Assembly: GCA_015519975.1 (NCBI GenBank)
Contig: WIAL01000030.1
Span: 1-38,715, forward strand
DNA from: Hydrogenothermaceae bacterium
GTDB taxonomy: Bacteria > Aquificota > Aquificia > Aquificales > Hydrogenothermaceae
Reading direction: 5' to 3'
DNA length: 38,715 nucleotides
The notes beneath the pieces are model-generated. The model did not search any database and was not told the origin of the DNA. It saw nothing but the letters and a program-made list of their open reading frames with translations. Positions 1 to 580 of this stretch are shown here, one piece after another. Within the stretch, counting starts at the first letter, position 1, and every line of letters starts with the position of its first letter. The translations under genes and the position numbers were made by a program.

Positions 1-101
1 AAGCCACTGCACGGGTATTTAAGGATAATCCTTATATCCGTGTAAGCTATACTTCTACGAAACAGGAAGCACGGCTTTTTTCAAAGCCGTGAGGATGTCA
101 C
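1..101 (+). mobile_element. Right end of an IS200/IS605/IS1341-type (TnpB) element
   Basis: The first 101 bases end in the stem-loop plus GAGGATGTCAC arrangement that I know from the right ends of tnpB-carrying IS605/IS1341-family elements. The terminal hairpin pairs 70-78 (CACGGCTTT) with 83-91 (AAAGCCGTG) around a TTTC loop and is followed at once by AGGATGTCAC. Beyond 101 the sequence becomes protein-coding. The left end and any tnpB or tnpA gene would lie upstream, outside the window, so neither completeness nor activity can be judged. The family call rests on the end structure alone. Confidence 0.72.
1..101 (+). ncRNA. 3' scaffold of a TnpB omega RNA (reRNA), partial
   Basis: Two strong hairpins lie in tandem. 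The first pairs 10-14 (CACGG) with 38-42 (CCGTG) and contains an inner stem of 20-25 with 29-34 closed by a TAA triloop. The second is the right-end hairpin at 70-91. In characterised IS200/IS605 systems the RNA read from this end carries the scaffold, and its guide is the host sequence just past the element. Here the guide would begin near 102 and read into the P-loop codons of the neighbouring kinase gene. The 5' part of the RNA lies outside the window. Expression is inferred. Confidence 0.58.
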
Positions 102-580
102 CTATATCTGCACCGTCTGGAGGTAAATCCACAATAGCTCAAAAGCTTTCAGAAATTTATGAAAATGACTTTTATAAAATAGGATTGGATGATTTAAGAT
201 TGAAAATTTTTTGTGAGAATTTTCCTAAAGTTTGCAAAGGAAATTTAACGGATGTTTATAAAAAAGCATTTAAATACATAATAGAAAATAAAATAGACAT
301 TGAAAAACTGCTCATCCAAAAAATAAAAGAAAACTTAAATAAAAAAGTAATATATGTTGACAATACAAATGCAACCTATAAGAGCAGGAGAAAAATTTTA
401 AACTCTGTTGAAAAAGAAAGATACAAAGTTGGGATATTTATATTTAGTGTTACTTTAAATGAAATTTTTAAAAGAAACGAAAAAAGAGAAATAAAAATAA
501 ATAAATCAGCAATTAGGCAGATTTATAATACTATATCTTTTCCTTCTTTGATTGAATTTGATGAAATTATTGTTTTATAG
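95..580 (+). CDS. AAA_33-type P-loop kinase, 5' end replaced by the IS end
   Basis: This small P-loop nucleotidyl or polynucleotide kinase-like protein (AAA_33 type) would have 161 residues from ATG 95, or 163 from GTG 89. Its Walker A reads SAPSGGKST, with serine where the family has the first glycine. A YVDNTNATYKSRR segment and the C-terminal lid-like RNEKREIK region fit small kinases of about 150-170 residues. Both possible start codons lie inside the IS right end, and GAGG abuts ATG 95 with no usable spacing. The original start was therefore probably lost and the present N-terminus is chimeric. The 3' end overlaps the convergent mnmD by 14 bp. The substrate is unknown. The gene may be expressed from the element or may be a decaying remnant. 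Confidence 0.6.
   Translation: MSPISAPSGGKSTIAQKLSEIYENDFYKIGLDDLRLKIFCENFPKVCKGNLTDVYKKAFKYIIENKIDIEKLLIQKIKENLNKKVIYVDNTNATYKSRRKILNSVEKERYKVGIFIFSVTLNEIFKRNEKREIKINKSAIRQIYNTISFPSLIEFDEIIVL

What the first reader, a model, noticed from the sequence alone, without database searches (positions are those of the whole stretch)
1..101. TnpB-type element end with folded omega RNA at the window edge
Two nested hairpins (10-42 and 70-91) and the terminal GAGGATGTCAC match the right end of IS200/IS605/IS1341 elements, whose RNA guides TnpB nuclease. The guide would start near 102, inside the kinase gene. TnpB with its scaffold is a programmable nuclease, and thermophilic versions are of practical interest.
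Basis: partly seen in the sequence, partly recalled or inferred. Interest (0 to 1): 0.72.

Follow-up and report, generated by a model that had tools for sequence, protein, structure and literature searches.

The report
Split end of a TnpB transposon
The first 101 bases of the window are the tail of a 1.4-kb jumping gene, cut off by a contig break, that carries an apparently intact RNA-guided DNA-cutting protein (TnpB) with its guide RNA and has split a repair-enzyme-like gene in a probably heat-loving bacterium; it is a new member of a known kind, with one unusual and untested feature in its cutting site.

Summary
Window 1-101 is the right end of an IS200/IS605-type element of the tnpB-only (IS1341) kind. 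The rest lies on contig C54, whose last 251 bases equal window 1-251. The element is 1446 bp; its 438-aa tnpB ends at window 92. It sits exactly after TTTTAC in an HD-kinase gene; rejoining the flanks restores the frame and matches uninterrupted relatives. The "second copy" in this genome is only the contig overlap, but related copies abound in Aquificota: left ends follow TTTAC, right ends finish GTCAC. Twenty-eight scaffolds show compensatory changes in every stem of an ISDra2-like omega RNA, including a pseudoknot between a GGAC hairpin loop (upstream of the window) and the terminal GUC. Hairpin 10-42 is the variable stem 3b, hairpin 70-91 is stem 4, 102-117 is the predicted guide. Unexpected: in 48 of 48 clade TnpBs the canonical RuvC-II catalytic Glu is Gln, with an acid two residues on; nine canonical TnpBs show neither. 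Either the catalytic acid has shifted or this clade cuts poorly or not at all. New member of a known kind; RNA, TAM and cleavage are predicted, not measured.

The parts
1..101 (+). Right end of a 1446-bp tnpB-only IS200/IS605-type element (C54:23790 to window 101); the rest lies on contig C54, which overlaps window 1-251
   Evidence: contig identity; same end in related genomes
3..92 (+). 3' end of tnpB: codons of residues 410-438 and the stop TGA (90-92); whole gene C54:23910-25226, 438 aa
2..48 (+).
52..56 (+). 3' strand of stem 3a (CUUCU; its 5' strand AGAAG is upstream of the window)
   Evidence: compensatory changes
63..66 (+). 3' strand of stem 2 (CAGG; pairs with CCUG upstream of the window)
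   Evidence: U-A to C-G change in 7 scaffolds
70..91 (+).
   Evidence: changes on both sides of most pairs
96..99 (+). Pseudoknot strand (UGUC, positions -6 to -3), pairs with the GGACU loop of stem 1 at C54:25103-25107; the -6 position is U.U in this copy
102..117 (+). Predicted 16-nt guide CTATATCTGCACCGTC, taken from the interrupted gene
   Evidence: element boundary; guide length by analogy with ISDra2 (PMC8612924)
102..580 (+). C-terminal kinase half of an HD-kinase gene split by the element; the HD half is C54:23183-23789

Best explanation
Window 1-101 is the right end of a tnpB-only (IS1341-type) IS200/IS605 element, 1446 bp, in an Aquificota (Hydrogenothermaceae) genome; a contig break hides the rest. 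A single-strand Y1 transposase acting in trans inserted it 3' of TTTAC in an HD-polynucleotide-kinase-like gene. The transcript of the 3' end of tnpB and the right end folds into an ISDra2-type omega RNA (stem 1, pseudoknot, stems 2, 3a/3b, 4) with about the first 16 bases of the interrupted gene as guide. TnpB with this RNA is predicted to cut the empty site TTTAC+CTATATCTGCACCGTC left by excision, so that repair from the copy that still holds the element restores it; the filled site is spared because GTCAC, not TTTAC, precedes the guide sequence. Shown from sequence: element, ends, insertion site, intact tnpB frame, RNA stems. Inferred: transcription, transposition in trans, cleavage and homing.
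For: tnpB upstream with TnpB domains; sequence match to ISDra2 TnpB, E = 4e-20; model of the 87%-identical homologue finds TnpB-RNA-DNA structures first; close left ends follow TTTAC and right ends finish GTCAC; exact frame-restoring insertion with uninterrupted relatives; covariation in stems 1, 2, 3a, 4 and the pseudoknot over 28 to 48 right ends; left end folds as single-strand DNA hairpins.
Against: No second copy in this genome and no tnpA with clearly matching ends. The canonical RuvC-II Glu is Gln, so nuclease activity is uncertain. No expression data. The left part of the element is on another contig; the join rests on a 251-base identity and on gene continuity.
Confidence: 0.9

Rival explanations
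1. The element is real, but its TnpB is catalytically dead or weak and acts as an RNA-guided binder, or is merely carried along, as with nuclease-dead TnpB derivatives.
For: The residue aligned to catalytic E278 of ISDra2 is Gln in 48 of 48 clade members.
Against: An acid at +2 is present in all 48 and in none of nine canonical TnpBs, and D216 and D373 are invariant in alignment A3, which suggests a displaced rather than a lost acid. The clade is spread over many different insertion sites with conserved RNA and ends, unlike a domesticated gene at one locus.
Confidence: 0.15
2. The hairpins are a transcription terminator or an unrelated repeat, not an omega RNA.
For: Stem 4 of this copy has a run of T in its loop; Rfam gives no match.
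Against: Position right after tnpB, the element boundary at 101 and the covarying pseudoknot and stems are not explained by a terminator; no T run follows the stem.
Confidence: 0.03
3. C54 and C19 carry two separate copies of the element in this genome.
For: Two contigs carry the sequence.
Against: The identity runs exactly from base 1 of C19 to the last base of C54 and includes kinase sequence, as in an assembly overlap; the HD half on C54 and the kinase half on C19 form one gene that is continuous in relatives.
Confidence: 0.03

Closest known systems
ISDra2 TnpB and its omega RNA, Deinococcus radiodurans (PMC8612924, PMC10097598; PDB 8h1j, 8exa, 8bf8)
   Same: TnpB fold, D at RuvC-I and RuvC-III, zinc finger, RNA overlapping the 3' end of tnpB, stems 1 to 4, pseudoknot of the terminal bases with a GGA-type loop, guide from the flank, TAM equal to the insertion site
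   Different: No tnpA in the element; TTTAC instead of TTGAT; GTCAC end; Gln at the E278 position with an acid at +2; pseudoknot loop in a tight 5-bp/5-nt hairpin, whereas the paper's numbering puts stem 1 of ISDra2 around a longer loop; 438 instead of 408 aa
Sulfolobus islandicus TnpBs (PMC10640517, PMC11043419)
   Same: Thermophile TnpBs; tnpB-only elements there follow TTTAT, close to TTTAC; right ends finish in TTCAC
   Different: Archaeal; the active enzyme tested (SisTnpB1) comes from a tnpA+tnpB element and uses a canonical Glu (E271)
ISFba1 TnpB (PDB 8iaz)
   Same: Best fold match of the model (Foldseek E 7e-19, TM about 0.6)
   Different: 23% identity; canonical Glu at RuvC-II
TnpBs with alternative RuvC-II glutamate and Fanzors (PMC10711439)
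   Same: The canonical RuvC-II Glu is missing; a Glu precedes the zinc finger in most members (E338 here)
   Different: E338 is six residues before the first Cys, whereas the published pattern ExxxxxxCxxC puts it at seven; ten of 48 clade members lack a Glu there, while all have an acid at Q+2
HD-PNK proteins such as D. radiodurans DRB0098 (PMC1997131)
   Same: HD domain followed by a P-loop kinase, as in the interrupted gene
   Different: Interrupted at Walker A here; HD match just under the Pfam cut-off; activity unknown

Membership tests
IS200/IS605 superfamily, IS1341-type (tnpB only) | tnpB without tnpA between the ends | tested here: met
   1446 bp with one gene; nearest Y1 genes are in other elements
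IS200/IS605 superfamily, IS1341-type (tnpB only) | Insertion 3' of a short fixed target without target duplication | tested here: met
   TTTAC before close left ends; flanks rejoin in frame and to the same length as relatives
IS200/IS605 superfamily, IS1341-type (tnpB only) | Subterminal imperfect palindromes at both ends | tested here: met
   Left end, right end
IS200/IS605 superfamily, IS1341-type (tnpB only) | Mobilised by a Y1 HUH transposase in trans | not testable with these tools
   The genome has two Y1 genes, one with an in-frame stop; no transposition data
TnpB RNA-guided nucleases (OMEGA) | TnpB domains and fold | tested here: met
   PF01385 and PF07282; fold
TnpB RNA-guided nucleases (OMEGA) | RuvC D-E-D catalytic residues | tested here: inconclusive
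   D216 and D373 present; the E278 position is Q296 with acid at 298
TnpB RNA-guided nucleases (OMEGA) | Omega RNA at the right end with pseudoknot and guide from the flank | tested here: met
   Structure by covariation; transcription not tested
TnpB RNA-guided nucleases (OMEGA) | RNA-guided, TAM-dependent DNA cutting | not testable with these tools
   Needs an experiment
TnpBs with alternative RuvC-II glutamate (E_alt clade of PMC10711439) | ExxxxxxCxxC: Glu seven residues before the first zinc-finger Cys | tested here: not met
   Position 337 is Tyr; E338 is at C-6; 0 of 48 clade proteins have Glu at C-7
HD-PNK end-healing enzymes (the interrupted gene) | HD domain fused to a P-loop polynucleotide kinase | tested here: inconclusive
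   HD 20.8 bits against cut-off 22; AAA_33 and KTI12 above cut-off; fusion continuous in two relatives; kinase substrate unknown

The most novel reading that the evidence does not exclude
The element's TnpB belongs to a broad clade of active RNA-guided nucleases whose RuvC-II catalytic acid has moved two residues along (Q-x-E/D in place of E), an active-site layout distinct from canonical TnpB/Cas12 and from the Fanzor-type alternative glutamate.
Probability: 0.35. Interest if true: 0.6.

Novelty: new member of a known kind. Interest (0 to 1): 0.42.

Why it matters
It gives the full anatomy (ends, predicted TAM, omega RNA, guide, empty site) of a TnpB element from a probably thermophilic bacterial lineage, supported by covariation. 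Class-level relatives have natural scaffolds of only 91-94 nt, shorter than the 116-nt ISDra2 scaffold, which may interest genome editors. The Q-x-acid swap at the RuvC-II site is a clear, testable question about how TnpB/Cas12 active sites can be rearranged. It also shows that a fragment at a contig edge can be resolved through the overlapping contig.

Tried and rejected
Rfam at gathering thresholds: no match in the window. 'Second copy' on C54: rejected as contig overlap. First structure prediction with 10 close sequences: useless (pLDDT 42); repeated with viral-contig homologues (pLDDT 81). The idea that E338 is the Fanzor-type alternative glutamate was noted and dropped: the spacing differs by one residue and some relatives lack it. 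The first segmentation scripts found 0 or 1 scaffolds because of a pattern error and non-overlapping matching; corrected. Four of the 48 rows (L010, L040, L066, L178) picked a wrong nearer hairpin; they were left in and lower the pairing count. Whether the genome's TnpA elements share this element's ends: not clearly (they end TTCAC). Residue distances in the model could not be measured because coordinates are not exposed. Literature on a Q-x-E RuvC-II motif: none found in the held library; the PNAS 2023 TnpB/Cas12 classification paper is not held.

Full report
What is in the window. Bases 91-101 read GAGGATGTCAC, and 1-120 folds into the two hairpins described, far below shuffled sequences (z = -4.0). 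The window is contig C19 of a 65-contig genome and starts at its first base. The same 101 bases also lie near the end of contig C54. The last 251 bases of C54 are identical to window 1-251, kinase flank included, and the match begins exactly at base 1 of C19. This is one locus cut by assembly, not two copies.

The rest of the element. On C54 a 438-aa tnpB (C54:23910-25226, ending at window 92) lies directly upstream, with OrfB_IS605 and Cas12f1-like TNB domains above cut-off. It matches ISDra2 TnpB at E = 4e-20 by sequence. A model of the 87%-identical homologue L013 (mean pLDDT 81) finds TnpB structures 8iaz and 8h1j first in the PDB. Its last 45 residues are of low confidence, matching the disordered ISDra2 C-terminal tail that also overlaps the RNA gene (PMC10097598). 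No tnpA lies in the element. The genome has two Y1 TnpA genes elsewhere, one with an in-frame stop, in elements that end TTCAC.

Ends and insertion site. In closely related copies with different flanks, the left end follows TTTAC and the right end finishes GTCAC, after which sequences diverge. More distant relatives show TTTAC, CTTAC or ATTAC. A few degraded left ends (such as L083) could not be read with confidence. Here the left flank ends AAAGTTTTAATTTTAC and the right flank starts CTATATCTGCACC. Joined, they read KVLILPISAPSGGKST, in frame. The corresponding gene is uninterrupted in G009 (411-aa frame, KVLILPVAPPASGKST, the same length) and in G006 (402-aa frame). It is an HD-domain/P-loop-kinase fusion, like D. 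radiodurans DRB0098 (PMC1997131). The insertion is thus exact and without target duplication. Both halves remain open, so it may be recent (inference). The left end folds into single-stranded DNA hairpins (z = -6.7).

The omega RNA. Twenty-eight distinct right ends could be segmented. Pair counts are as follows. Stem 1 (CCUAC/GUGGG here) also appears as CCCGU/GCGGG, GGGUU/GGCCC, GGGCU/GGCCC and others; its complementarity was a selection criterion, so its variety, not the 28 of 28, is the evidence. Stem 2 (CCUG/CAGG) changes to CCCG/CGGG. One stem 3a pair is A-U, U-A or C-G and forms in 28 of 28. Six of the seven stem 4 pairs vary with compensation. The 5-nt loop of stem 1 (GGACU here) pairs with the terminal bases: the -5 pair is C-G, A-U or G-C and the -6 pair is C-G, U-A, A-U or wobble, though U.U in this copy. 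With viral-contig and canonical relatives added, 166 of 192 cells pair; none of 5000 reassortments reaches this. Relatedness inflates such counts, but the changes span several families. The layout follows ISDra2, in which -105 to -103 pair with -5 to -3 (PMC10097598). In window terms: 2-48 is stem 3b, 52-56 the 3' strand of stem 3a, 63-66 the 3' strand of stem 2, 70-91 stem 4, 96-99 the pseudoknot strand, 102-117 the guide. The scaffold starts at C54:25098, 138 nt before the guide.

How it most likely works. By analogy with ISDra2 (PMC8612924): after strand-specific excision the empty site TTTAC+CTATATCTGCACCGTC is cut by TnpB with its RNA and repaired from the copy that still holds the element. 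The filled site carries GTCAC before the guide sequence and should be spared, as TTCAC-flanked native sites are in Sulfolobus (PMC11043419). No intact TTTAC-flanked copy of the target is left in this genome; the closest other sites have three mismatches in the 19-base query. These steps are inferred.

An unexpected feature. ISDra2 E278 aligns to Q296. All 48 clade proteins that could be scored, from Aquificota genomes and viral contigs, have Gln there plus Asp or Glu at +2, while nine canonical TnpBs, including this genome's two others, have Glu and no acid at +2. In a tree, the 45 Gln-type proteins lie on one side of a branch with support 100/100 (two canonical rows, L045 and L046, were mislabelled there by the text pattern). 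D216 and D373 are invariant in the 14-protein alignment A3. I first read E338 as the Fanzor-type alternative glutamate (PMC10711439), but its spacing to the zinc finger differs by one residue and ten of 48 members lack it, so that filing is not made. Either the catalytic acid has moved by two residues, or this clade cuts differently or not at all. Whether this has been described could not be settled with the held papers.

Verdict. The finding is real and correctly interpreted. It is a new member of a known kind, with a family-level active-site question that deserves an experiment.

Noticed in passing
P0001 (L003:3911-5227) residues 296-298 and homologues in A3, A4: Canonical RuvC-II Glu replaced by Gln with an acid two residues on, in 48 of 48 clade TnpBs; E338 before the zinc finger in 38 of 48.
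   Followed up: partly
L031, L032, L134, L135, L137, L139, L140, L142, L148, L149, L152, L153: Class relatives have very compact natural omega RNA scaffolds of 91-94 nt, with stem 3b reduced to a short hairpin.
   Followed up: partly
L010:5222-5429, L028:1485-1656, L017:565-737, L018:502-673, and C55:68714: A roughly 36-bp palindromic module (TTTGCnnnGCAAAnTGGCGAC...GGAGCAA) sits inside several IS200/IS605-type genes and scaffolds, apparently in frame; the pattern occurs in 8 of 41 genomes with almost none for the reversed control, and not in the window.
   Followed up: partly
G000:C54:10841-12318 (L006, L009): A tnpA+tnpB element of the same genome has an in-frame TAA in tnpA, a canonical TnpB, a GGAAC pseudoknot loop and a TTCAC end.
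   Followed up: partly
G000:C55:68279-70059 (L008): Intact Y1 tnpA followed by a 470-aa-frame TnpB-like gene, ending TAGTTCAC; the only intact Y1 TnpA found in this genome.
   Followed up: partly
L067:1279-1357 (G021:C86): A degraded right end with no tnpB match reported nearby, possibly a solo relic that keeps GGATGTCAC.
   Followed up: no
window 89-580: The element end supplies GTG (89) and ATG (95) in frame with the kinase half, so a truncated kinase starting just before Walker A could be translated; probably not functional without its first strand.
   Followed up: no
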